From contig NC_072791.1 of NCBI RefSeq assembly GCF_028583425.1, positions 17,875,868 through 17,939,867 of the forward strand: a DNA stretch of 64,000 nt, given 5' to 3'. Both the position numbers and the translations under genes were made by a program. Below are positions 30,340 through 50,082 of this stretch, one piece after another. A model generated the notes under the pieces. That model saw only the letters and a program-made list of their open reading frames with translations, made no database searches and was not told where the DNA came from. Within the stretch, counting starts at the first letter, position 1; each line of letters starts with the position of its first letter. This DNA comes from Eublepharis macularius (lineage: Eukaryota > Chordata > Lepidosauria > Squamata > Eublepharidae).

Positions 30340-32740
30340 GCTAATTTATGCTTGCCCGCGGAGACTAATGGATCCAATTGGTTTCCAGAATTTTCTGCGG
30401 GATCTGATGTCCCCTGGTGGTTTGTTGGATGAGCTGGTAAGGGACTGGTATGACCGTCTCTCTGAAGCCATCAACAAAATAACTCCTGGTTGCCCTCTCC
30501 ATTCCTGTGCTAGACGGGCTCCCTGGCATACGGAGGAACTACGTTAGATAAAGCGGAAACTGAGATGGCTTGAGCAAGTGTGGCGGCAGAATCAGAGAGA
30601 AGAGACAAGATCATCTTATAGAGTGTTAATGAAAGCCTATGAGGTGGCTGTGAAGGCAGCAAAGAAGGATTTCCATGCCGCCTCCACAGCGTCTGTAAGC
30701 TCACGCCCGGCAAAAATGTTTCACGCTGTTCAATCCTTGGTCTCTGTTTCTCAGGGAGACCGCCAAATTAAAAAATTGGCTATTGGCTGCGAGGCTTTGG
30801 GGAGCTTTTTAGAGATAAAATTTTGTCTCTCCGCCGTGATCTGCCAGCCACAGTTGATACAGTAAGGGAACTGGAGGCCCCCTGGCTGCCCTCCGGCCCT
30901 TATTTAGATCACTTCAGTCTGGTGTCCCAGGAGGAAGTTGACAGGATCCTGCAGCGGGTGAGGCCCACCACATGCTCCCTGGAGCCCTGCCCTCCGTGGC
31001 TCGTGATGGGCAGTAGGAACGGGTTGGGGGCCCAATTGGAGGCTATTATTAATCAATCACTGAGTTCTGGGGTTTTCCCTGGAGTGTTGAAGGAAGTTGT
31101 GGTGAGCCCTCTCCTGAAAAAAACAACTTTGGACCCCACCGATCCATCCAGTTACTGACCAGTCTCGAACCTCCCGTTTCTGGGGAAGGTGATTGAGCGG
31201 GTGGTGGCAGAACAGCTGCAGCTTTTCCTGAAGGATTCTTCCATCCTGGACCCATTCCAGTCTGGTTTCTGCCTGGGACACAGGACAGAGACAGTGCTGG
31301 TCACCCTCACGGATGAGCTTTGCAGACACATGGATCGAAGCGGGGCAGCACTGCTGATTTTATTGGATCTTTCAGCAGCGTTTGACACAGTTGACTATGA
31401 ACTGTCGACCCACTGCCTCGCCGAGGTGGGGATCCGAGGGACTGCCTTGCAGTGGCTTGTCTCCTTTCTCCACGGTCAGGGACAGAGGGTGGCTCTTGGG
31501 GAGAGCTTATCCGCACACCAGCCTTTGGTGTGCAGTGTTCCACAAGGAGCGATACTTTCCCCTTTGTTATTCAACCTGTACATGTGCCCCCTTGCCCAGT
31601 TGCTGTGAAGTTTCGGACTGGGTTGTCACCAACATGCAGATGACACCCAATTGTAACTGCTGATGGGTGGCTGGCCTGACTCTGCCCCTGATGTCCTAGT
31701 AAAAGCTTTGGAGGCTGTAGCTGGATGGGTAAAGCAGAGCTGGCTGAAGTTGAACCCGGTAAAGATGGAGATCCTGTACTTGGGCTGGGGGTTGCCAGAT
31801 TTGGGAATCCAGCTCCCGACCTTTGATGGGGCGCAATTAGTGCCTGTCTCATTGGTCCCGAGTCTCAGAGTGATACTGGATTCCTCCTTATCGATGGAAG
31901 GTCAGGTCACAGCAGCTGCCCAATCTGTGTTTTCCCATCTTTGACAGGCCAGGCAGCTTGCGCCTCATCTGTCAACCCACAACCTAACTACAGTGATCCA
32001 TGCAACAGTCACCTCCAGAACAGACTACTGTAACTCGCTTTAAGCAGGGCTTCCCTTGGGTCTAACCCGGAAATTACAGCGGGTGCAGAATGCTGCTGCA
32101 TGTGTCCTGATGGGCACACCATACAGGCAACATATTACTCCCATCCTGCAGCCGCTGCACTGGCTCCCCATCGAATTCCAGATTAGGTTCAAGGTTTTGG
32201 TTTTAACCTTTAAAGCCCTAAACGGACTGGGACCAGCATACCTGCCGGACTGTCTGTGTACCCCGGAGAGCATTAAGATCAACAAATAAGAACTTACTGG
32301 TGGTCTCTGGCCCCAGGGAGGCCTAGCTGGCCTCGACCACAGCCAGGGCATTTTCAGTCCTGGCTCCAACCTGGTGGAACTCTCTGTCGGAGGGCATCCG
32401 GGCCTGCCAGGATCTTATATCCTTTTGGCAGGCCTATAAGACAGAGACGTTCTGCCAGGCATATGGTTGAGGCCAGTCTTTGATCGTTTAGGAGCCTTCC
32501 TACTGGTCTCCCACCAGGGGGGCAACGTAATCATCTGCCTCCCTATAAGCACAGTCACCAGATTATTATAAACTGTGCCCCCACCCCACTCCTTTGTTCT
32601 GCTTTGTTTCTATCATGATTGGGGAAATGGGAGGGGGCCTGCCATCTGTTTTTGTATGCATTTGTGGTGTTTTTTGGATTTAATTGTATTTTATATGTTT
32701 TAATGCTCATTGAGCATTTTATTGTAACCCTCCCTGAGCC
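30340..32740 (+). pseudogene. L2 LINE ORF2, 5'-truncated, many frameshifts
   Basis: A decayed L2 reverse transcriptase. Successive frames give RRAPWHTEELR, then KAYEVAVKAAKKDFH, the linker LEPCPPWLV and the thumb-proximal VVSPLLKK. RT blocks follow: FLGKVIERVVAEQL, DPFQSGFCLGHRTE, LLILLDLSAAFDTVD and VPQGAILSPLLFNLY. The catalytic box reads HADDTQL, so the usual Y/F of YADD is H. Then come VKQSWLKLNPVKMEI and QLAPHLSTHNL, and the C-terminal HWLPIEFQIRFKVLVLTFKA. Stops and frame changes occur throughout, and the endonuclease half is missing. It ends at CCCTGAGCCCG, joined to microsatellites. Confidence 0.88.
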
Positions 32741-37930: not shown

Positions 37931-37933
37931 TAG

Positions 37934-37951
37934 GGTTGAATCCACATTACC
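37934..37951. repeat. Left terminal inverted repeat
   Basis: GGTTGAATCCACATTACC, paired with 49860-49878. GG...TGAATCCACATT is shared; the pair differs at the third base and by one inserted C. Confidence 0.75.
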
Positions 37952-40260
37952 TCTTTTTTCCCGGTTGTTCTCCACATGAAATCCGCATTTCAGAGTGCCG
38001 GTCACATTACCCAATCCTCGACACGCATCTCTCTCGGATTTCCATCGAATTACTAGTAGCGGTTTTCTTGCGGGAGTTTCACGATGGACGTGAACGCTTG
38101 CGAGCGCAATTTTCGCGCTCCTTTTTTAAACAGCCGTCAATCAAGTCTCCCCTTCCTTTCCTTGCGTTCCCATTGGCCGATTCCACCAGAGATGGCTCGT
38201 GAGCGATTTCTCCTATATTTCCCCTTTATTTGCTTTCGTTGCTTGGTTCAGCAACATTCGATTTCTCAAAAGCCAAACTTTTTCCTCATTAACATCTTTT
38301 TAGTGGCCCAACCACCCGAATATCCTCTTCCCCCCCCTCCTCTTTTAATTTTTTTTTTAAATTGATCTGTCATAGCGAAATTTCGTAGTGTGTTCCAGCG
38401 CAACAAAGATCACATTTAACTGCCGTCCTAACGCCTCCTGCCTCGGCCCATGTATACAGTGCTCTAGAATGATACCACAAACAAGTTTTTAAAATCAGCT
38501 GTGTTTCTTGTTCCTTGAGAAATGTCTCTTTTAATTTTTTTGCCTTTTTTAAAACTTAAGTCATCGTGACGCAGTGACGATTGATCAAAATAAAAAGCTT
38601 TGGAAGTCCAACCCGGAATTATTTTGTTGGAATGTTATTAAATCGTTTGGTCAGGGTGCGTCTCGTGGCTGGCGCCTGTCACGACCGAAGGTTGAGCACC
38701 ACGGGGACACTTGGCTAGGGTGCCTTTTCTGGGCGCAATACTTTTTTTATTCCCACATAACAAAATATCGCTATTCCAAAGATTCATTAAAAAAAAAAAT
38801 TAGAAAAAAAAAGGATCAGAGAATCGAGGGAAGATTTACGTGCCGCAGAGACAGAATAGGAATCAATTGTGTTCCTGGCAAAAATATTAGTAGATAAAGA
38901 AAGTTTGTCAATCTTGGATTAACGTGGGAAATGCTGTCCAAAAACATGCAGAAAACATTTTGAAAATCGAACACCTTTCTGTTGCTCTTAAAGAAACGCT
39001 TCTTATTTCTGGTGACCCAATTTTTTAGTTCCACATTGACATCCATGAACTTAAAATACATTCCCTTGAAATCTTATCTGTATTTCCATTCCTGTTTTGC
39101 TGTAAAATTTGGTGTTATGCCTGGGGACACAATGGAGAAAGCATTCTGAAGATACAGTGAATACAGACAGAATGCTAAATTTAAAGTTGTGATGTGGCGT
39201 TCTGTGGGTTCTTTGTGGTTCTTCGTGTTTGGAACCCATCTCAAACCTGTGTGCCAACCAGGCTGGAGACTACGACGTTTGGCCCCCCGATTGGAGTGAT
39301 GAATGGGAAACCTAGGATATCAGCAGAATCATTCTGGACATAATATTCTAAGTGTCGTTCGGCATCCTCCACTTTTAAACAGCTCCTTTTGTTCCACGCC
39401 AGTAAAAGAAAAAACACATCTGGATATCCAGCACAGATAGGGGCCCGCCTGTAAATTCTGTTACTTGGCGTCACGTGTGGTTCATTTCCATCACACCCAA
39501 TCTAAAACACTGGGGACTGATTGATTCAGCACTCCATTCAGAAAATCATGCATTCAATGCCAGTTTCACCCATTGATTTCATCTCCCACATTAATGGACT
39601 GTGCTTTTGAGAGGGAAGAACGGGTAACACCAGGAGCGGCACATTCCAGACGAATCAGAATTGGTATTTTTGTATTACGCTGTGCCAACAAATTTCAGCT
39701 TGATGTCTCCATGTGATGTGGTGGAACAACCAGTTTCTTGGGCCATTTAAAGTACAGGTCATATCACATTATTTCTCAACATCAGCAATTTAGAGCCCAA
39801 TTATGCCATTGGGGTGATGCTCCTTAAATTGTCAGTGCTTCCCTCGTCTGGAAAACTGAGTCTGGTGACATGATGACAGGGGGGATGCTTGTGAGGTGCT
39901 TGTAGAACAGTATAATCCACCATTTGCCACTTATATACCATGTCCCAAAAAACCTACAATTGTGTCAAGTCAACTGTGGCAATCAGAATGTGACACATGA
40001 GACTAAACTTTGGCAGGTAAGGCTAATGAAGTTCGAGGTCACAATAAATACAAACACTTCACGTGTTTGCCGGGGATGCGGGAAATTAGAAAAAAGGGGG
40101 TGCAGAGAACACCTATGATGATGTGGGACATTGCACCAACAGGGGGTGGGCATTGATTGTTATTTGGGAAATCTAGTGGACAGTCCAGAAAGCCATTACA
40201 CCTATCTTTTTGATGCATAGACATGGACCACGTACAGAGAAAATATCACTGTGACATCAT
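37952..40260. other. Left arm of the Harbinger element, function unknown
   Basis: About 2.3 kb of AT-rich sequence. On the minus strand 39450-39249 is open across a possible exon: acceptor TTTACAG before GCGGGCCC, donor CACAG|GTTTGAG, with readable KVEDAERHLEYYVQND. Another open stretch, 39061-38870, reads MDVNVELKNWVTRNKKRFF. I could not join these into one gene and no domain is recognised. They may be a decayed third accessory gene or chance frames. Confidence 0.35.
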
Positions 40261-40403
40261 GGAAAATATTTTTTTAATTTAAGGAAAAAATTAAGCAAAA
40301 GAGAACCACCAAAAAAAATTTTTTTTTTAAATGAACAGCACAACAATAAACTGTGGGGGAAGGGGAAGAAAACTTGGGTAACTATATACAGTGGTGAGAA
40401 CAA

Positions 40404-42073
40404 TCAGGGTGCATCCCCAGAGGCAGAGGGACGATGTCTCCTTCTCTCACGGCGCTCCATCACATTGACTCGCCGCCCCAGGCGTGCTAGTCGGTCCTCC
40501 ACGCTGCTCAACCTCTCTTGCACATTTGAGACTGAATTTGGGAAAGAAAAGTGTCTTTGAGAGACGGCACCCAAAAAAAGGGTGACAGCACCATTCAGAG
40601 CAAAAACTTACTGGATGATCCTAGCCTCTCCTCCATCCTCTCCATGGCCGTGAACAGATCTCCTATCCCTCTGCGTTGGGCTCTTCCTGGGGGAGCAGAC
40701 CTTCTGCTGGTTGAGGGACCCTCCTCCGACCGTTCCAGTTGGCTTTCCTGTGCACTAGCTTCAGAAATGAAAGGAAGAAATCAAAATCTTGTAAAACGGT
40801 TTGGCCACAGCAGTCATAACATCCTGGCTGATCCACTGTGGCATCAACCTCCAGATTCTCTGATTTCATTTCAATGATTACAGAAAAATGGGAACTCTGT
40901 TATAGCACCAGCAAATAAAACATCGGAAAGCATTAATTTTTTTTTCTTGCTGTTACAAAGGAGATAAAAAAAGGCTGGCAATTATTTTTTTTCACAGCAC
41001 ACTTTTGAAATCGTGGAAAAGCCTGGTGGGTGGTGATGCTCCGTGCTTGGGGCACCACTGTCATATACAACTTCCCCTCCATCCATGGAAGTGTGGAAGC
41101 GAATGTGGTCCCACTCATCCATGGACACATTCTATGAAGGTTGATGGTCAAGTGCACGGTGTGGGAAAGCATCAGTTGCTGGTCTGCCTGATTTTAGGTG
41201 GGGAAGAATATATTAGGCAAATACATGCTTACCAGGGGGTGCCTGTTGTGATCCCTGTGCAGGGTCCTCAGAGGAAGCTTGCTCCCCAGCCACCTCAAGC
41301 GCCTCCTGCTCCTCGTCTGCTCTTGCCTCCCCCACGGCAGCGGTGGGAGCTCTACCACGGAGAAGGGCTGCAAAGTGAAGAAGAAATGTTGGCACACTCC
41401 ATCAAACCATTGCAATCGGAACATTCATGACAAAAAGGTGCAACAAAGATAACACCAGCAACTGTGCACCGTGATGAACACAGCGGCTCGACACATGCCA
41501 CATTCCCAAACTTGGGGTCCCTCACGCCGAGCAGAAAAAAAAAAAGGTTTCTTTGTAGGAGAAAAAAAAACCGCTATTGCAATAAAACGGCGTTGTGCGA
41601 CGATTACGGGGGGTGGGAATGGAATCTCAGCTCTCCCCCCACCATCTAACTTTTTGCCTAGTTTCTCCACATTGACGTGCACTTAACAGCGTTGTTAATT
41701 TAAAATTAAATGCTTTTAAGAGGTTCTTACCAGCATGATGACGGGATTGCCAGCTTGGCCTTCCGGCGAGATCCCAGAGGTTCATCATGGACGCAAAGTA
41801 CGGGGGCTTTCCACTCTGGCGAGGGATCCCCTGCCAGGCTTCCAGCGCCCCGTAGAAGTCCCCCTTCACCCTCTTGAACTTCGATCTGCACTGTTCGGGG
41901 GTCCTGCTGTGACCACGGGCACACATCTGCCTCGACAGCTTGTGAAATATAAGCTTCGTGGGCAGATGTGTGCTCCTCATTACACGCGCCGCTTTTCCGG
42001 AGCGTGCAACGAGGTCCAGCAGGGTCTCCACCTCTTCATCCCGCCAGAAGACTCCTTTTGCCGCTGCTGCCAT
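40404..42073 (-). CDS. Myb/SANT-like (trihelix) protein A, 250 aa, 4 exons
   Basis: Probably the DNA-binding partner of the transposase: Harbinger elements usually encode a Myb-like protein that binds the element and helps bring the transposase to the nucleus and target. Exons on the minus strand are 42073-41731, 41367-41233, 40758-40612 and 40531-40404. All junctions have GT..AG and the phases fit (753 nt including stop). Exon 1 holds the SANT/Myb-like domain (about residues 8-95): FWRDEEVETLLDL, then RGHSRTPEQCRSKFKRVKGDFY. Exon 2 is an acidic, alanine/glutamate-rich linker. Exons 3-4 give a probable coiled coil (FTAMERMEERL, VQERLSSVEDRLARL) and a basic end (MERRERRRHRP). The ATG follows CTAAACGAAATA-side promoter sequence shared with gene B. 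A weak ATTAAA signal lies at 40278-40273. It is a different gene from B, not a tandem copy. Confidence 0.82.
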
Positions 42074-42672
42074 ACTTGTTCCTAAACGAAATACCGAAAA
42101 TGTGCTGTTACATAAATTAGCATGCCCTCATAACGGCTCCATAAAGGCGCGGAAAAAAAGGCTGCTGATTGGACGCGCTTGAACAGGATGACCAATCGGT
42201 GTTGAGGATTTGATTTCGGCGCCAAATGCTGTTGAATGAACACTATGTTCTCCCACACTCATGGGAAGGCCCTTTCAGGCCAATAATTTTTATTTCTGCT
42301 ACTTGAGTTCCAGTGAAGCATGAGAAAGCATTGTTAACAAGAACAGGGGTTGATTTCTTATCAACAAATTGGTTCACTTTTCACATCGCATTACAGTCCT
42401 TTTAACGAAACATCTTCCTGGCGTGCCAATGCATCCACGAAAATTCGTCATAGCGTTATTTTGTCACATTAAAATTAATTAGGCAAAGGAACGGGTGGTG
42501 GCTACAGCGCATGCGCAATTAACGGCTTGGATTTCCGGCGGGAGAACAGTGCTTGGTCGACGGATCACAGTGCAGTGGACTGCCCTCCATTTGCTTTCTT
42601 GCAGACGTGGGGAGAGAAGAGCGACCGACACTCTGATCTGCGGACACCATCATAAACAATTGTTTTTTGAAA
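42074..42672. promoter_or_regulatory. Divergent promoter region between the two SANT genes
   Basis: About 600 bp separates the two start codons. It holds CCAAT boxes on both strands (ATTGG at 42168-42172, CCAAT at 42192-42196), a perfect NRF1-type palindrome GCGCATGCGC (42507-42516) and an ETS-like TTTCCGGCGGGA close to gene B. No clear TATA box. The likely reading is a housekeeping-type bidirectional promoter. Confidence 0.55.
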
Positions 42673-45600
42673 ATGTCGGCCACTGCTCCTGTGGCTCCAC
42701 GATCAGCGACATGGAGGGAAAAAGAGGTATTGGACCTCCTTTCTTTCTGGGGGGAGGACAAGATACAGGAAGCCCTTAGAAGCTCCCACAGGAACTTAGA
42801 CAACTTTGAAAAAATTTCCAAAATGATGTCCTCGCGTGGTCATCGGCGCACTGCATTGGAATGCAGGAACAAAACAAAAAGTATGCGGTTGGAGTACAAG
42901 CGCGTCATGGCACACAATTCCACTTCTGGAAACGGCCCCATTACATGTCCTTTTTTTCGTGAGCTGGACAGTATTCTAAGAGGGGACGCAAGTGTTAAAC
43001 CTAAACGGATAGCGCGAAGCATTTCTTTTGCCCAAGGACCCCCGCAGATAAGCGCCCCCAGGGAAGTGATGGAGGGATCGGAGGAACTCTTCTCGCACGA
43101 CATGCAGACGATAGATGCTGCACCGCTGTGGTGCTCTTCTCCAAATCCCATGGCAGCACGTGAGTGATGGAGCGTTGATTATTCTAGTTCAGAGCTATGA
43201 TTTTTCTTCCTTTTCACATTTCCCTGTCTATGAAATCGTAACACCTTTATTGATTTCACGTTTATAGCGCAGAACTCGTCATCATCCACCGATGCCAGTG
43301 AAGAGGATCTTGACCGCACCATAGATGGACTTGCTGACAAGGGTGAGCATTTTTTTGACAGGTTGCTCCAATGGTGGCCCACCCAAAAACAGTCCCTGGA
43401 AAGGCTGAAGACATCTCGAGAGTGGGAACGCCAAGATGAGAGTGCCTGTTTTAGGGGAAAAGAGGGGCACGACCTCAGGTTTGCAAGATATGGGAAAGTC
43501 TGTCAGTGATGGGATGGTTTGGAGGTCTGTCAGTTATGGGGATGATGTGACATCATCGGCCACACCGTGGAGGTTGTCTTAGACTTATGGTTTCAAATGT
43601 TCAACTGTTCACTCCTGCCCAGCCCATCCATGCAAGCAACACCACGGTTTATCCGTTCTATATTTACCAAAATGCATGGATGGAGTTGGCTCTGGATTCA
43701 AATATATTTTTGATCAGTCTCCTTTTCATTAATGGATGCCTGACTTGAACTCCAATCTCTACACTCGAAGCATATAAACCCAGTGCCCAGCTTCAGGGAC
43801 AGATGAACACAGGAATATGAGACCGTGGACGGGTGCATGGACTGGTGCAATTTTCTGTGTGAGACATTCCGGTCCACTAAAAGGCTGAATAAGGGGTAGA
43901 TGACAGAGGGCACATTCAAAATCTGTTTCAGGTTTTCAGGGCCACCTCTTAGTCATTATAGTGGTGCAAAAAAAAACCAGACGTCCCATTACAGCTCCTA
44001 TCATCTCTTATATATTGATAGTGGCACAGATACAAATAAGAAAAGAGGACAACGCAGAAGACAGTGCCTGCGAAGTGAATGTTTGAATTGTATTTATCTA
44101 TATCACATCCCCGTGTTTTTCAAACCAATCACATTTAAAACCTATAAATTTTCAGAAAACGACACTACAGGTGCAAACGCAATGGAGGACGACGACAGTG
44201 ATTCAGACCTTCCCCTGGGGCATCGTTCACGCTATAACACGGGTAAGCTTAGTTGATCTGCAGAATCTAAAAGAGTCCAGTTGCACCTATGAGAAGAGAC
44301 AATTGCAGAGTGGCATAAGCTCTCCTGAATCACGTTATCTTTGTCTGACATATGAAACAGAGCATGGTCAAATATAGAGGGGGGGAGAGAAGTGGAGGAG
44401 AGAGCAGAGTCATCTTGGGAGGCCGGAGGGTGCCTCACAATCGTTCCTTTTATGTCACATGTCCAAAATCTCCATTCTTTGTGTGCGACTGTTGGCCTCC
44501 AAGGCAGTTGCCCTGTTAGTTTCTGTAAGCCCAACAGCAAGACCATAATATCCCCTTGGCGTGTGACCCTCCTATGGACACAGACCTACCTGCAAGATGA
44601 ATTAAAAAAACAAAAATTTTGTTCCCAGAAGCCCACGCCAGGTGTCACCGAGCTCACCCAGACCCCACCTGGTGCAATAAAATCTGTCACCTGTTTCACT
44701 GTGAACAGCATGCATAGTCCCCATTCTGAACCAAATGGAACGTATGAAATTTTCATGTGTGTTGCAATTCATCGGCCACGCAGGGTGCATAGGTTAGAAA
44801 AAAAAATTTTTGGGACAAACTACGGCTACCTTACAGTCTGCATTGGATTTTCCCAGAACAGTGTAGTGTTCTCCCACTGGTAGCTGAAATTTCCCATTTA
44901 TCATGTGAGATTTTTGTCAATGTAATTTTTATTGCATTTGTTGGCTGGTTTCTCAGATCTGCAGCGCACATTGAACCGCACCTTGCACCCCTCAATTGAT
45001 AATGCCAACACTGTTGATGTGATCTGCACTGACATGAATCACGGTTCCAAAAATTAATTCTGAGGGACACCCAGACACCGTCTTGGATCACCTATCCTCT
45101 TTAATGGTTGCTCCCACCACATATGTTCTGATGTTGTCAGGATTTCAAGGAAATTCTTGATTTGGCATAACATTGAAAATGGTCAGAATGTGCTCACTGT
45201 GGAACATTGCAAGAGCAACGTTGGTCAGCATTGGTGTAAAAGGCAGATCCGGACACAGCACGTCTCCTCGCTATCTAAAGCAGATAAATTGGTCTCTCTC
45301 ACTAACGCAGTTTTAAACATAATAGCTTTGACTGCTGCCAGTATGTCCTCCATGTTATTTCTGCACAACCCATATGGCAAGTGGCATTGTAAAAGCCTTC
45401 CCGTTATGGAAAAACCTTGATGCTTGTGCATGCATGGTTATCAAAAAATGTGCAACACATTGGCCTCGGCGGGGGCGACGGGATGAACTAGGCCAGAATC
45501 TGTTATGTGGGTTTTGGAAGTCATGGGGAAGAGCCCAAACTATGAAGCCTGCTGCTGGCCAACCAAAAAACATGTTGCATCCTTTTCTTCAGGATAAGAT

Positions 45601-46126
45601 TTCTGAATAATGTCTGAGATGTTAACAATTTATTGATCTGTTGCTCTGACTTACATCCACAGCAGACGGGGCAGATAACAGATGCCTAGCAGAAGTTTCA
45701 CCGGGAACAAGACTATTCCAACTAAGAAACAGGAGACGCAGAAACGCAGCACTCTATGGAGTAGCCGATGATATGATGCGCCGTTCTCGAGAGGAGCACA
45801 ATGCCCAGGTTTCCCAATGGCGAACGGACAGAGAGATGCTGTGCAGTTGGAAGGCTGATGAGAACAAGATTCAGAGGGAATTCTTGGATCACACTAAAAT
45901 GGAGAGTGAGAAGTTTGCCGAGGCCTGGAAACAGAACATTTCGGTGATGTCTGATGCTGTGAACACTTTGAAGTCATTGGGACAGATGCTCGCCCAACAG
46001 CGTCAAATCATCCCCCCAACACACGATTATGGGCAAACCGCCCTACCTGCCTCACAGGCAACCCCGAAGAAGGCAGCAGCGAGGCGTTCCTGTGTTGGCA
46101 AAGCCAGGGAGAGGCTGACGCTTTGA
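42673..46126 (+). CDS. Myb/SANT-like (trihelix) protein B, 370 aa, 4 exons
   Basis: A second probable DNA-binding accessory protein of the Harbinger element. Exons are 42673-43159, 43268-43342, 44156-44242 and 45663-46126. GT..AG borders and phases fit, giving 1113 nt including stop. The start is the ATG at 42673, because the upstream in-frame TTG is not a eukaryotic start. Exon 1 carries the SANT-like domain (about residues 12-100): ATWREKEVLDLLSFW, then RGHRRTALECRNKTKSMRLEY and PFFRELDSIL. Exons 2-3 are serine/aspartate-rich and acidic (SSSSTDASEEDLD, EDDDSDSDLP). Exon 4 is basic then long-helical (RNRRRRNAALYG, REEHNAQVSQWRTDREML), a probable coiled coil. An AATAAA at 46248-46253 with GT-rich sequence after it is a good polyadenylation site. 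The domain layout parallels gene A but the sequences differ widely. Confidence 0.85.
44262..44375 (-). mobile_element. Old Penelope-like scrap in intron 3 of gene B
   Basis: AAAAGAGTCCAGTTGCACCT at the left, then GCATAAGCTCTCCTGAATCA and TTGTCTGAC at the right, resemble a reversed Penelope-like tail with its hairpin. It is diverged; the match is by eye. Confidence 0.4.
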
Positions 46127-46247
46127 GGAGCTATGTTCTGCGTTGCCCTCCTTATTTGCCACATACCATGGTTTTTGGCAGCAAAATTCATTTGACAGAT
46201 TCCATTGCTCTGGTGACCCCTTAATGGTCTTTATCTATTGTATTTGA

Positions 46248-46253
46248 AATAAA
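46248..46253 (+). terminator. Polyadenylation signal of gene B
   Basis: AATAAA 122 bp after the stop, followed by TGTGTGTT. Confidence 0.75.
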
Positions 46254-46818
46254 TGTGTGTTAAGGAGTTGTCGCCCCAGTCATGTATGTCTGTTTTAAAA
46301 TTCTTAACTTTCTGGGATCAAATGGAATCATCAGGGTATAAGATGATGGCCAATCGTTTCCAATGTTGACTCCCTTTTTTTTTTCACCGCAATCCCCAAA
46401 GTTTAGGAATATTTAACATCAGACAATACAATGAAATCACAGTAAGAATCACATTTGTGTTTCTTTGTGTAAGTGGCATCACTCATGTAGTGACCATTCT
46501 AAACAGCCTTCCTGCAAAAAGTGAAACGCAGCAGTTACCAATCAAGTGGCGCTTCCCCCCCCCCCTGATTGCAACATGCGGCTAAGTTGTATCTTTGGGA
46601 GGAGCACTTGCAGTCCAAATTGGAAATTTGGGGGGGGGGCGGATTCCAGACTTGGCCAAAAATACCCTGACAAACTGTGAACGATGTATGCGGGGGACCA
46701 CTCAGCTGTGTGGGAATGTATTGTCTGCATGTGCCAGGACTTGATTTCACATCCACCGCTTGTCTGACAGCACCCCAATAATCAATAGTCTTTTGAGTTC
46801 AGTTAACCAAATTTTTTT

Positions 46819-46824
46819 TTTATT
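46819..46824 (-). terminator. Polyadenylation signal of the transposase gene
   Basis: AATAAA on the minus strand, about 110 bp past the stop at 46934. It faces the gene B signal, so the two transcripts converge without overlap of coding sequence. Confidence 0.65.
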
Positions 46825-46933
46825 TACACAGATTAGAGTTGCTGGTTGAGACCATTTATGTTCCCCTTGGTTTAGCAGCTTTTCGAAGCAGGTTAGCCGA
46901 TGTCCATCACTTGCCGCACCGAGGGAGGCAACA

Positions 46934-49515
46934 TCAACTTGTGGAATCTAGGCCCATATACTTGGCCAGGGCATCCCTAACCACCTTTCCTTCGGCAAGA
47001 TGCCTGTGATGGGTGGTCAACTCTTGTCCCTCTCCATGTGAAACAAGTATTGTCTCTGGGGCTGCTCCGCGGCCAGTGATGGGATGTCCCCGGCTTTCAC
47101 AGAGGTTGTGCAAAACAACACATGCTGTCACCACAGCGATGACGTTGTGCTCCCTAACTTGGAGGCGGTGTGACAGACACCTCCACCTGGCCTTCAGTCT
47201 TCCAAAACAACATTCCACCACGTTCCTGGCTCGCGATAGGCGGGTGTCAAACATTTTCTGAGCTTGTGTGGTTGCCGTTCTCCCGTAGGGCTTCATAAGC
47301 CACCTACGCATGGGGTAGGCTCCATCGGCGATGACCACCGGGGGTATTCTTACACCGTCCACCACCATGAAAGGGTTTCCCGGAATTAGTGAGCCACTAT
47401 CCATGGCAACACAGAAGGCGGAGTGGGCGAACACGAAGGCATCGTGGTTCTTCCCACTCCACCCCACCTCGGCGTCCACAAATCTTCCGCGGTGATCAAC
47501 TGTGCCTTGGAGCAGAATCGAGGAATAGTTCTTGCGGTTGCCGTACTGATCTGGGCGGCCTCCAGGAGCGCAGATCGGGATATGCGTTCCATCAATAGCT
47601 CCCACACAGTGCGGGAAACCCAATCTACGGAAACCGTCCATTATCTGGGAGAAAGAAAAAAGAAAGGAAAAAAAAAGTCATAGTGCTATCAGGCAAACTG
47701 TGCATCAAATAATCATCATCACTCAGCGATGTCTAGTTCTTAAACACCCTGAAAGGGATTATTTTTGTAAATTGAATTTAGGATTTTTTTGCATTCTGAA
47801 ATGTTGGGTGGAGGTTCTCTTATGTTTGGTGTAATTTAAATTGAATGATCCACATATCCACACAAGTCTCTCTCTTCTCACCCTTTGGCAATAAAGGTGA
47901 CCGTTGGTGGTTTAAAAATCAGCATCTTTTTGAGGCCACTAAGTGGCCCACCAAATTGGGATCGTCTTGTGCCTCGCTAGAGGGAACGAGAACGGGTGTG
48001 AGACGGGCCCATGACAATTGGGTCCATACTGGACTCAAAATTCCACCCCGGGCCACAGAGGCCTCTATTTTTTCTAACCCTGGAGACAGGTGTTTGGCGG
48101 TGTATGAGGCACTGTTTTTCGGGGTAAACCAAAACATCCCCCCAGGTAACAAATTAACTAGAAATTGTTGGAGAGTGGGATAACAGGTCGGATAAGGTGC
48201 CTTGCACGTTGTGTTTACTTTGCTTTCACAATGCCACCCAGAGCCACCATGAAGGGAGACGTTTCTCCCCATAGAGAACCATGGAGATTTTAGGAGGATT
48301 CGTGAAGAATTGGATGGGAGGGGGGGTAAACTTGTATCCCCATATTTCACAGTATTCCTAAATTTGGAGGTTTGACAAAGTAGGGTTAGGAGAAGGTGTT
48401 CAACAACTGTGCAACGATTAGGGTCACACAGTAGGGGGAAATACCAAACTGCATTCCTGCACACCACCCCACCTATGTAAACCAAATGTTTATATCACAG
48501 AGGCAAAAAAGGCAATTCCTCTCCAAGACAGTTCTTTTTGTTACCTGCTTCAGATCACACGGCGAGGGGTGTGTGTGTGTGTCAGTTGTTGCCCCTCTTT
48601 TTCTTAAAAAAAAAGGATTTGTGTGGTGGAAGAACACACTATGAGGGTTTAATGCCATTGCATGCTCAAGGTGTCTGTGGGCAATGTTCACTCACACTCA
48701 AACAAACACATAGCGTTGTAGATTTTGAGAGGGTTTCAAAATTACCTTTAAAATGACTGGGAGAGGGGGATGATGTACACACCAGAGTGTTGTGTACTGG
48801 TCGTTCCGTTAATGTCACAATTTTTTTTTAAACGATAAATTGTAATAGCGAAATTTTGATATTTCAAAATAAAAATTACCTGTCCAATCCCACTTCCGAA
48901 GGAGACAGTCTTCGATAGAAGTTCCACCTCGACCGCGAGGCAGAACTCGACCACCGCGGAGGCTACCGTTGACTTCCCAATCCCGAACAGATCGCTCGCC
49001 ACCTGGTAGCTTGTTCCGCTGGCCAGCCACCAAATTGCAACCGCGACTCGTCTCTCCACCGATATTGCAGAGCGAAGGGAGGTGTTTTGACGCTGCAGCC
49101 TTGGACGCAGGGCTTCCACCAAGTCGATGAAGGTCCTCTTGGACATCCGGAAGCGGCGCATCCACCGACGGTCATCCCAGTGCACCAACACGATATTCTC
49201 CCACCAGTCGGTGCTTCTCGGGTATACCCAGTGCTGCCGTGGCTCCTCCATCTGCGCAAGCAGGAACCAATGTTGGAAGCGCTGCCGGCGCCGAATTCTG
49301 GAGCGCGTCCAGGCGACGGTGGAGACTGAATCCTGGAACAGAATCCTGGCTGCAGCTCTGCGGCGTTGGGCTGAATAGCGCCGGTAAGCGAGAAGCAGCT
49401 GCGTCTGGCAAGCCAGCAACGTAAACATCAGCTGTCCGATGAGGGCGACTATAGGATCCATACCCACAACCGAATCGGCAACAGTAACCACAACGACACC
49501 AAGCACACCAACCAT
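46934..49515 (-). CDS. PIF/Harbinger DDE transposase, 448 aa, 2 exons
   Basis: Cuts and joins the element at its ends; same family as the domesticated vertebrate gene HARBI1. Exon 1 is 49515-48880 (donor CAG|GTAATT) and exon 2 is 47644-46934 (acceptor CTCCCAG|ATAATGG). The junction is in phase 0 and the whole frame is open. Residues 100-190 include a helix-turn-helix-like segment (VAVAIWWLASGTSYQVAS, FGIGKSTV). The catalytic core in exon 2 shows the DDE triad: D230 in GAIDGTH, D319 in IADGAYP and E356 in ARNVVECCFGRLKARW. The last two are 36 residues apart. The GKNHDAF and NRKNYSSI family motifs are present. The first 18 residues are unusually hydrophobic; M19 (MDPIVALIG) is an alternative start. 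No premature stop, so the enzyme could be functional. Confidence 0.92.
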
Positions 49516-49556
49516 CCGCTCACACCCACAAATAGATTTTGCCGAGAACCTTCCCT

Positions 49557-49563
49557 TTTATAG
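49557..49563 (-). promoter_or_regulatory. TATA box of the transposase gene
   Basis: TATAAAA on the minus strand 42-48 bp upstream of the ATG at 49515. It would give a very short 5' UTR; its distance to the right end of the transposon is about 315 bp. Confidence 0.5.
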
Positions 49564-49859
49564 ACCATTCGAATCGCCCGCCCAAAAAAGTTAACCAGTG
49601 GCTATCGAGATGTTCACGTGATTTGTCGCTTTGTTGATGTTTCCTCATTTCGATAAAACGAAATAACGGAAAAGTGTTTTCAAAAAAAATAAAAAAAAAG
49701 GGAGGGAAAAAAGGTACCGCCCACAAAAGCGGTTGGCGAGCGGACGTGTGACCGGAGGCTCGCGCGAGAAAGCCGGATGGGGAGCCTGAATGTGAACGGA
49801 GAAGGAAAAGTTGCGGGTTGGAGGAAACCGAAAGAAAAGCGATTTATAAGCGGGTAATG

Positions 49860-49878
49860 GGTGAATGTGGATTCAGCC
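49860..49878. repeat. Right terminal inverted repeat
   Basis: Read inward: GGCTGAATCCACATTCACC. TAG follows at 49879-49881. Confidence 0.75.
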
Positions 49879-50082
49879 TAGGTTGCTGCTCTTTTTATTG
49901 CAGTCTGTGCGTCATGACTCACAAACCCTTAGGAGATGAAGCCCTCCCCCTCACGCACTTGTTTCAATGCCAGGAAAAGCTTCACCTACTTTTATTTTTG
50001 GTTTTGACCCTGAAGGCAGGGCCTGTCCTTCTTTGCTAAGTTCTTACTTGGACTTCCTCCCATTCCAACCTCCTCACCTTGA

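What the first reader, a model, noticed from the sequence alone, without database searches (positions are those of the whole stretch)
37934..49878. An 11.9-kb Harbinger transposon with an intact transposase and two different SANT-like genes
Seen directly: matched short inverted ends, TAG on both sides and three complete spliced open frames. Established: PIF/Harbinger elements generally encode one DDE transposase and one Myb/SANT-like partner in roughly 3-8 kb. Inference: this element uses two specialised partners, or one partner has acquired another job such as regulation or target choice. Size, gene number and intactness make it the most promising undescribed system in the window.
Basis: partly seen in the sequence, partly recalled or inferred. 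Interest (0 to 1): 0.88.

Follow-up and report, generated by a model that had tools for sequence, protein, structure and literature searches.

The report
Three-gene gecko jumping gene
A leopard gecko genome carries dozens of nearly identical 12-kilobase Harbinger transposons that encode a transposase plus two different DNA-binding partner proteins, where the described relatives have one partner.

Summary
It has matched ends, a TAG duplication and three intact spliced genes: a DDE transposase and two SANT/Myb genes, B and C.

It is one unit. Of 40 scored left ends, 38 pair with a right end; 32 of these span 11,935-11,952 bp and all 38 hold B and C. All 11 copies read in full keep the three frames and splice sites, at up to 99.97% identity.

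B and C separate into two clades. 109 of 150 scored C hits have a B within 15 kb (chance about 0.28), in two gene orders. Against the sister family all three genes show purifying selection. A distant family, one copy measured at 17.1 kb, also holds B-like and C-like genes. The end 15-mer occurs 2,941 times, often in short elements.

Papers seen describe one Myb-like partner; none listed in ten searches names two. Function is untested. Best reading: transposition machinery with two non-redundant SANT subunits.

The parts
37934..49878 (.). complete Harbinger-type transposon, 11,945 bp
37931..37933 (+). target site duplication TAG, left
49879..49881 (+). target site duplication TAG, right
37934..37948 (+). 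left terminal inverted repeat GGTTGAATCCACATT
   Evidence: the 15-mer GGYYGAATCCACATT has 2,941 matches genome-wide, reversed control 3
49864..49878 (-). right terminal inverted repeat GGCTGAATCCACATT
37934..38209 (.). left terminal region: 86-98% identical to sister family L035 in 8 of the 10 listed 50-column steps, lowest 78%; CpG-rich; partly shared with 0.87-kb short relatives
48880..49515 (-). transposase exon 1 (HTH match below Pfam's cut-off)
46934..47644 (-). transposase exon 2 (DDE_Tnp_4, PF13359)
41731..42073 (-). SANT gene B exon 1 (PF13837 domain)
41233..41367 (-). SANT gene B exon 2
40612..40758 (-). SANT gene B exon 3
40404..40531 (-). SANT gene B exon 4 with stop (C-terminal helix region)
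   Evidence: helix predicted on relative P0001
42673..43159 (+). SANT gene C exon 1 (PF13837 domain)
43268..43342 (+). SANT gene C exon 2
44156..44242 (+). SANT gene C exon 3
45663..46126 (+). SANT gene C exon 4 (long helix and conserved C-terminal tail)
42074..42672 (.). 599-bp divergent intergenic region between B and C, presumed shared promoter
   Evidence: layout; all 93 paired C hits of at least 70% identity are divergent from their B; promoter role inferred
38372..38383 (+). motif ATAGCGWWATTT, one of four in the window, all in the element (others 38763-38774 -, 42450-42461 +, 48845-48856 +)
   Evidence: motif chosen after the fact, one exact site in sister family L035

Best explanation
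This is an autonomous, recently active cut-and-paste transposon of the PIF/Harbinger (PHIS) superfamily that encodes a DDE transposase and two long-diverged SANT/trihelix proteins. Shown: one mobile unit, three intact conserved genes, a 3-bp duplication, and the same gene trio in diverged families of the same genome. Inferred: recent activity (from near-identity of copies), and that both SANT proteins are non-redundant subunits of the transposition machinery. In zebrafish Harbinger3_DR the Myb-like protein binds a subterminal motif and is needed for both proteins to reach the nucleus. Here that job would be split between B and C, which would have different DNA specificities and pair through their helical C-terminal parts.
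For: Single unit. Three genes intact in 11 of 11 copies. Purifying selection: omega 0.09 (transposase exon 2, 219 codons), 0.19 (B, 249), 0.18 (C, 367) against sister family L035; fixed subfamily differences 0.3-0.6% in coding against 1.57% in non-coding sequence. Gene trio elsewhere: of 10 DDE loci sampled, 8 (L029-L036) have transposase, B and C homologies within 10 kb downstream; of the other two, L038 has B-like and C-like genes upstream in one repeated unit and L037 is unresolved. B and C split at 100/99 support. B-C linkage: 109 of 150 C hits. Profiles of both SANT groups match the plant GT-1 DNA-binding domain weakly, E 0.0024 and 0.0037. Models of both have a long helix in the C-terminal half. 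Harbinger3_DR: PMC9710019, passages.
Against: No expression, binding or excision data. The SANT domains of B and C match each other at only 29-36% identity, so one may serve regulation. Between the two young subfamilies the counts are too small to show constraint on B and C amino acids: omega of the subfamily majorities is 0.09 for transposase, 0.32 for B (1 silent, 1 replacement) and 0.58 for C (2 silent, 4 replacement). Against more distant families silent sites are saturated in most comparisons. The motif ATAGCGWWATTT has one exact site in the sister family. Models: mean pLDDT 61.8 (C, on P0005) and 68.2 (B, on relative P0001 from 4 sequences). Transposon proteins act in trans, so retention shows a need at lineage level.
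Confidence: 0.6

Rival explanations
1. Only one SANT protein (B or C) is the transposition partner; the other regulates the element, for example by binding the region between B and C and setting expression. (The rivals are not all mutually exclusive.)
For: B and C start back to back across 599 bp; all 93 paired C hits of at least 70% identity are divergent; one copy of motif ATAGCGWWATTT lies there. The SANT domains are far apart in the tree.
Against: In another set of families all 16 paired hits are convergent, median 5.6 kb apart, so a shared promoter is not essential. The motif is not exact at that place in the sister family.
Confidence: 0.3
2. Two older elements, each with one SANT gene, fused or nested, and the second SANT gene is a passenger.
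For: Gene order differs between families; the L037/L039 stretch looks like elements nested in one another (my reading).
Against: End pairs span at least 11.9 kb with B and C inside in 38 of 38 units. Both SANT genes show purifying selection against the sister family and have homologues beside transposases of 52-56% (L029, L030) and about 41-45% identity (L038).
Confidence: 0.05
3. One SANT protein steers target choice or chromatin state (for example counter-silencing) rather than excision.
For: Target duplications are relaxed, 3 bp of mixed sequence, not the classical TWA (PMC4482050, passages). C-like SANT domains occur in squamate proteins with RING or KRAB domains.
Against: No direct evidence; non-TWA 3-bp duplications are also known in Nuwa groups described with one SANT gene.
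Confidence: 0.15

Closest known systems
PIF/Harbinger transposons (e.g. zebrafish Harbinger3_DR; teleost Harbinger)
   Same: DDE_Tnp_4 transposase, SANT/Myb partner gene, short inverted ends, 3-bp duplication, short non-autonomous relatives
   Different: Described with one Myb-like gene and, for autonomous candidates, about 4.1 kb average length (PMC4482050, passages; PMC9179366, abstract, sections 3 and 20; PMC9710019, passages). Here two SANT genes, 11.9 kb, and 17.1 kb in one distant copy.
NuwaI/NuwaII groups of the PHIS superfamily
   Same: 3-bp non-TWA duplications; CAG in 3 of the 9 copies with an exact duplication; DDE plus Myb/SANT
   Different: NuwaI duplications are CWG, here mixed; one Myb/SANT ORF described (PMC4482050, passages). 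Phylogenetic placement against Nuwa not tested.
Harbinger-Snek of sea kraits
   Same: Recent Harbinger expansion in a squamate, with short non-autonomous copies
   Different: Two proteins (PMC8437027, first of four text parts and passages)
TET-positive PHISTA Harbingers of rust fungi
   Same: Harbinger-type elements with three proteins
   Different: Besides the transposase they encode a TET/JBP dioxygenase and a third protein without a Myb/SANT domain, with TA duplications (PMC12730594, passages)

Membership tests
PIF/Harbinger (PHIS) superfamily | DDE_Tnp_4 transposase | tested here: met
   PF13359 E 2.2e-33; frame intact in 11 of 11 copies
PIF/Harbinger (PHIS) superfamily | SANT/Myb partner gene | tested here: met
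   two genes, PF13837 E 3.4e-11 (B) and 1.3e-17 (C)
PIF/Harbinger (PHIS) superfamily | terminal inverted repeats and 3-bp duplication | tested here: met
   15-bp inverted repeats; exact 3-bp duplication in 9 of 11 copies, 2 of 11 differ; empty site
PIF/Harbinger group in the narrow sense | TWA target duplication | tested here: not met
   0 of 9 exact duplications are TWA; definition from PMC4482050
PIF/Harbinger group in the narrow sense | two genes, one Myb-like | tested here: not met
   three genes, two Myb-like; PMC4482050 says most, not all, candidates have two ORFs
NuwaI | CWG target duplication | tested here: not met
   3 of 9 are CAG, the other 6 differ
NuwaI/NuwaII | transposase groups with the Nuwa clade | not tested
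   no Nuwa reference sequences were put into a tree
ISL2EU | YqaJ exonuclease as second gene | tested here: not met
   no YqaJ match in the five exon frames scanned or in P0035, P0005 and P0001
Harbinger3_DR-like mechanism | Myb protein binds a subterminal 9-bp motif and is needed for nuclear entry of the transposase | not testable with these tools
   needs binding and localisation assays

The most novel reading that the evidence does not exclude
The transposition complex is a true three-protein machine. B and C recognise different DNA sites, for instance one at each end, giving directional end recognition, and excision needs both. This would be a second-subunit branch of Harbinger biology that has persisted across many families in this gecko.
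Probability: 0.3. Interest if true: 0.82.

Novelty: new variant of a known kind. Interest (0 to 1): 0.62.

Why it matters
The papers seen here treat PIF/Harbinger elements as two-gene systems, and explain domesticated pairs such as HARBI1/NAIF1 and ALP1/ALP2 by that pairing (PMC9710019, passages). A lineage that keeps two diverged SANT paralogues together with the transposase, in dozens of young copies, makes the question of what the partner protein does directly testable by drop-out. It also offers an apparently intact vertebrate transposon with many short relatives.

Tried and rejected
Two side-by-side elements: rejected, since end pairs span the whole unit. Chance frames: rejected by intactness in 11 copies and exon-shaped conservation peaks. 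A binding-site argument from ATAGCGWWATTT: kept only as an observation, because the motif was picked from the same sequence and has one exact site in the sister family. Shared 8-mers between the two ends: 14 positions against 3.0 in base-shuffled controls, but half or more are the inverted repeat and T-runs, so no claim. Structure search of the B model: 169 matches at E <= 10, none at E <= 0.001; best a Sap1-DNA model at 0.019, GT-1 third at 0.6. Solved-structure search with the transposase: no hit at E <= 0.1. Four own-family C hits without a DDE partner are not taken as deleted copies, since one search scored 150 of 1334 candidates; one search shows both ends at all four. Paper search used a phrase that cannot match the usual slash spelling, so its zero is not evidence; one search also returned zero.

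Sampling: L029-L038 are 10 of the 150 DDE places, chosen by open-frame length class; they are not ten families (L032/L034 98-99%, L029/L033 about 86-87% alike). In L037 and L038 the 10 kb downstream showed C only and neither gene; the upstream stretches were then fetched for these two, plus both sides of one 502-class copy. The 11 full copies are the window plus 10 of the same class. The 33 DDE hits used were chosen by me by score and frame class. No row of 150 was dropped from the C-B counts; the B list ends at about 64% identity, so the weakest C class (16 of 54 paired) is undercounted. The chance value 0.28 comes from 200 crude random shifts of the B positions that ignore contig lengths.
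Full report
The window lies at C2:17875868-17939867 of a 2.24-Gb animal assembly. Database proteins of Eublepharis macularius come from contigs with exactly the lengths of C5, C6 and C3 (175,518,112; 145,573,841; 189,624,839), so the source is taken to be the leopard gecko; this is an inference.

Anatomy. The element runs from 37934 to 49878 (11,945 bp), with ends GGTTGAATCCACATT and GGCTGAATCCACATT and TAG on both sides. The transposase (minus strand, two exons, 448 aa) matches DDE_Tnp_4 at E 2.2e-33. Gene B (minus, four exons, 250 aa) and gene C (plus, four exons, 370 aa) each carry a PF13837 SANT/trihelix domain. B and C start back to back across 599 bp.

One mobile unit. Ten further copies were fetched; all ten align over the full length at 98.0-99.4%, one with about 130 extra bases some 2 kb from the left end. 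All 11 copies keep the three frames and every GT..AG junction, and pairs reach 99.97% identity. The ten were picked by their transposase frame, so its intactness is partly selected; B and C were not. Exact 3-bp duplications are present in 9 of 11 copies: CAG three times, CAT, ATA, ACT, ATC, TTT, TAG; two copies do not match (CAG/CTG, CTT/CAT). For the CTT/CAT copy the uninterrupted target is seen in a related repeat, about 75% identical, at about 30.7-31.0 kb of the window; the alignment is best when 3 bases of the filled site are left out. This was the only spanning match for the 11 joined flanks, which were compared only with the 0.36 Mb then held.

Genome-wide. The left 260 bp gave 40 scored hits of 172 candidates and the right 160 bp 40 of 1046. 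38 of 40 left ends pair with a right end; 37 of the 38 have left ends of at least 97% identity and one belongs to a sister family. 32 of 38 span 11,935-11,952 bp; the six longer ones (12,079-18,857 bp) probably hold insertions. All 38 contain a C and a B exon. 37 places carry C exon 1 at 95% identity or more, none with a stop. 33 of these 37 have a DDE hit within 15 kb, 32 of them at 4,430-4,443 bp, and each of the 33 DDE hits I had assigned to the family has such a C.

The trio is old and selected. Against sister family L035 (76-81% DNA identity over aligned parts), dN/dS is 0.09 for transposase exon 2, 0.19 for B and 0.18 for C; against more distant families silent sites are mostly saturated. 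Between the two young subfamilies, fixed differences are 0.6%, 0.3% and 0.4% in transposase, B and C and 1.57% outside them; the replacement/silent counts there are small (transposase 2/7, B 1/1, C 4/2) and do not by themselves show amino-acid constraint on B or C. Of ten DDE loci sampled from other classes, eight (L029-L036, about five or six families) have transposase, B and C homologies within 10 kb downstream, in two orders; this is homology, not proof of intact genes (L030 has a stop in its transposase). L031/L032/L034 share one block that ends at the inverted repeat, and L029/L033 share one block with all three genes; ends were not checked for L030 and L036. In L037 the downstream 10 kb showed only C and in L038 neither. 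Upstream of L038, of the most distant class (about 41-45% transposase identity), lie a C-like gene (E 2.5e-22) and a B-like gene (E 9.4e-10; E-values for a small six-frame set). A 502-class locus shows the same pair, and the two loci share one repeated unit. The L038 copy has matching ends 17.1 kb apart and AAA on both sides. L037/L039 holds one B-type and two C-type matches, looks nested and was not resolved. In the SANT tree all 13 B rows separate from the 15 C-side rows at 100/99. The pairings win+L035 and L031+L032 recur in the transposase, B and C trees, with moderate support for win+L035; the rows of the most distant family are long branches and their place is unsure. Across the scored hits 109 of 150 C have a B within 15 kb, against a mean of 0.28 (maximum 2) in 200 crude position shifts. 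At C identity of 70% or more, 93 of 95 are paired, all divergent; at 63-69%, 16 of 54, all convergent; the one weaker hit is unpaired.

Short relatives. The 15-base end GGYYGAATCCACATT has 2,941 matches, against 3 for the reversed pattern. Among the first 100 listed sites, all on C1, 34 inverted pairs lie within 13 kb: 16 of 171 or 180 bp, 16 of 683-1,503 bp and two of 11.94 kb. Six short ones were read; 5 of 6 have an exact 3-bp duplication (CAT, CTG, CAA, TGT, CAG). Two 0.87-kb elements share about 180-217 bp of the right end at 82% and about 105-115 bp of the left end at 74-75% with the window element, so they come from a sibling family. The three of 171-180 bp share only the outermost 15-21 bases. 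That these are moved by this machinery is inference.

Mechanism. For zebrafish Harbinger3_DR the Myb-like protein binds a subterminal 9-bp motif and its contact with the transposase is needed for both to be in the nucleus (PMC9710019, passages). Here two SANT proteins with a similar predicted plan (SANT domain, disordered linker, long helix in the C-terminal half, on P0005 and on P0001, a 64% relative of B) are kept together. I take both to be needed for transposition with different DNA sites, at about 0.6. A regulator role for one of them is the main rival. The motif ATAGCGWWATTT (four in the window, all in the element, 0.02 expected in shuffles) is a lead only.

Novelty. Han et al. 2015 (PMC4482050, passages) give two ORFs for most candidates and an average of about 4.1 kb for PIF/Harbinger, and two-ORF Nuwa groups. 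Etchegaray et al. 2022 (PMC9179366, abstract, sections 3 and 20, a term search) describe one Myb-like gene. The abstract of the insect co-domestication paper (PMC9710019, passages) says all known PIF elements have two genes. Harbinger-like elements with other extra genes exist in rust fungi (PMC12730594, passages). In ten library searches no listed title or abstract start names a Harbinger with two Myb genes. Two of these returned nothing, six of the other eight listed only part of the matching papers, and I did not read most of them. Only open-licence papers are held and Repbase could not be consulted, so a description elsewhere is possible.

Homologues by protein. B: four hits among 4,516 candidates, all Eublepharis. 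C: 30 hits among 2,913 candidates, 16 Eublepharis, 13 other squamates, one turtle. Transposase: 244 at E <= 1e-20, of which 120 were listed. The library depends on deposited gene models, so absence of B elsewhere is weak evidence.

Noticed in passing
L040 + L038 (C6 about 4984408-5001506): A 17.1-kb Harbinger-type element with ends GAGCCGAAACAGACG, AAA on both sides, a distant transposase, B-like and C-like SANT genes and tandem arrays of about 250 and 212 bp.
   Followed up: partly
P0021-P0025, P0032, P0072, P0080: Squamate proteins that join a C-like SANT domain to a RING finger (Elgaria, Liasis, Varanus, Anolis) or to a KRAB domain (Rhineura), and KRAB/SCAN joined to a Harbinger transposase (Python, Anolis): possible domesticated host genes (P0021).
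   Followed up: partly
L043-L048 and the C1 sites: Abundant short relatives with the same 15-base ends, including near-palindromic elements of 171/180 bp and others of about 0.87 kb.
   Followed up: partly
C7:125752989-125778052: Two full-length copies of the family in inverted orientation about 1.2 kb apart.
   Followed up: no
window 30782-30983: A dispersed repeat that also flanks copy C2:144 and served as the empty site.
   Followed up: yes
window 37934-40403: The leftmost 2.5 kb holds no gene that I recognised, yet its outer 276 bp are nearly as conserved with L035 as the exons, and the outer 300 bp are CpG-rich.
   Followed up: partly
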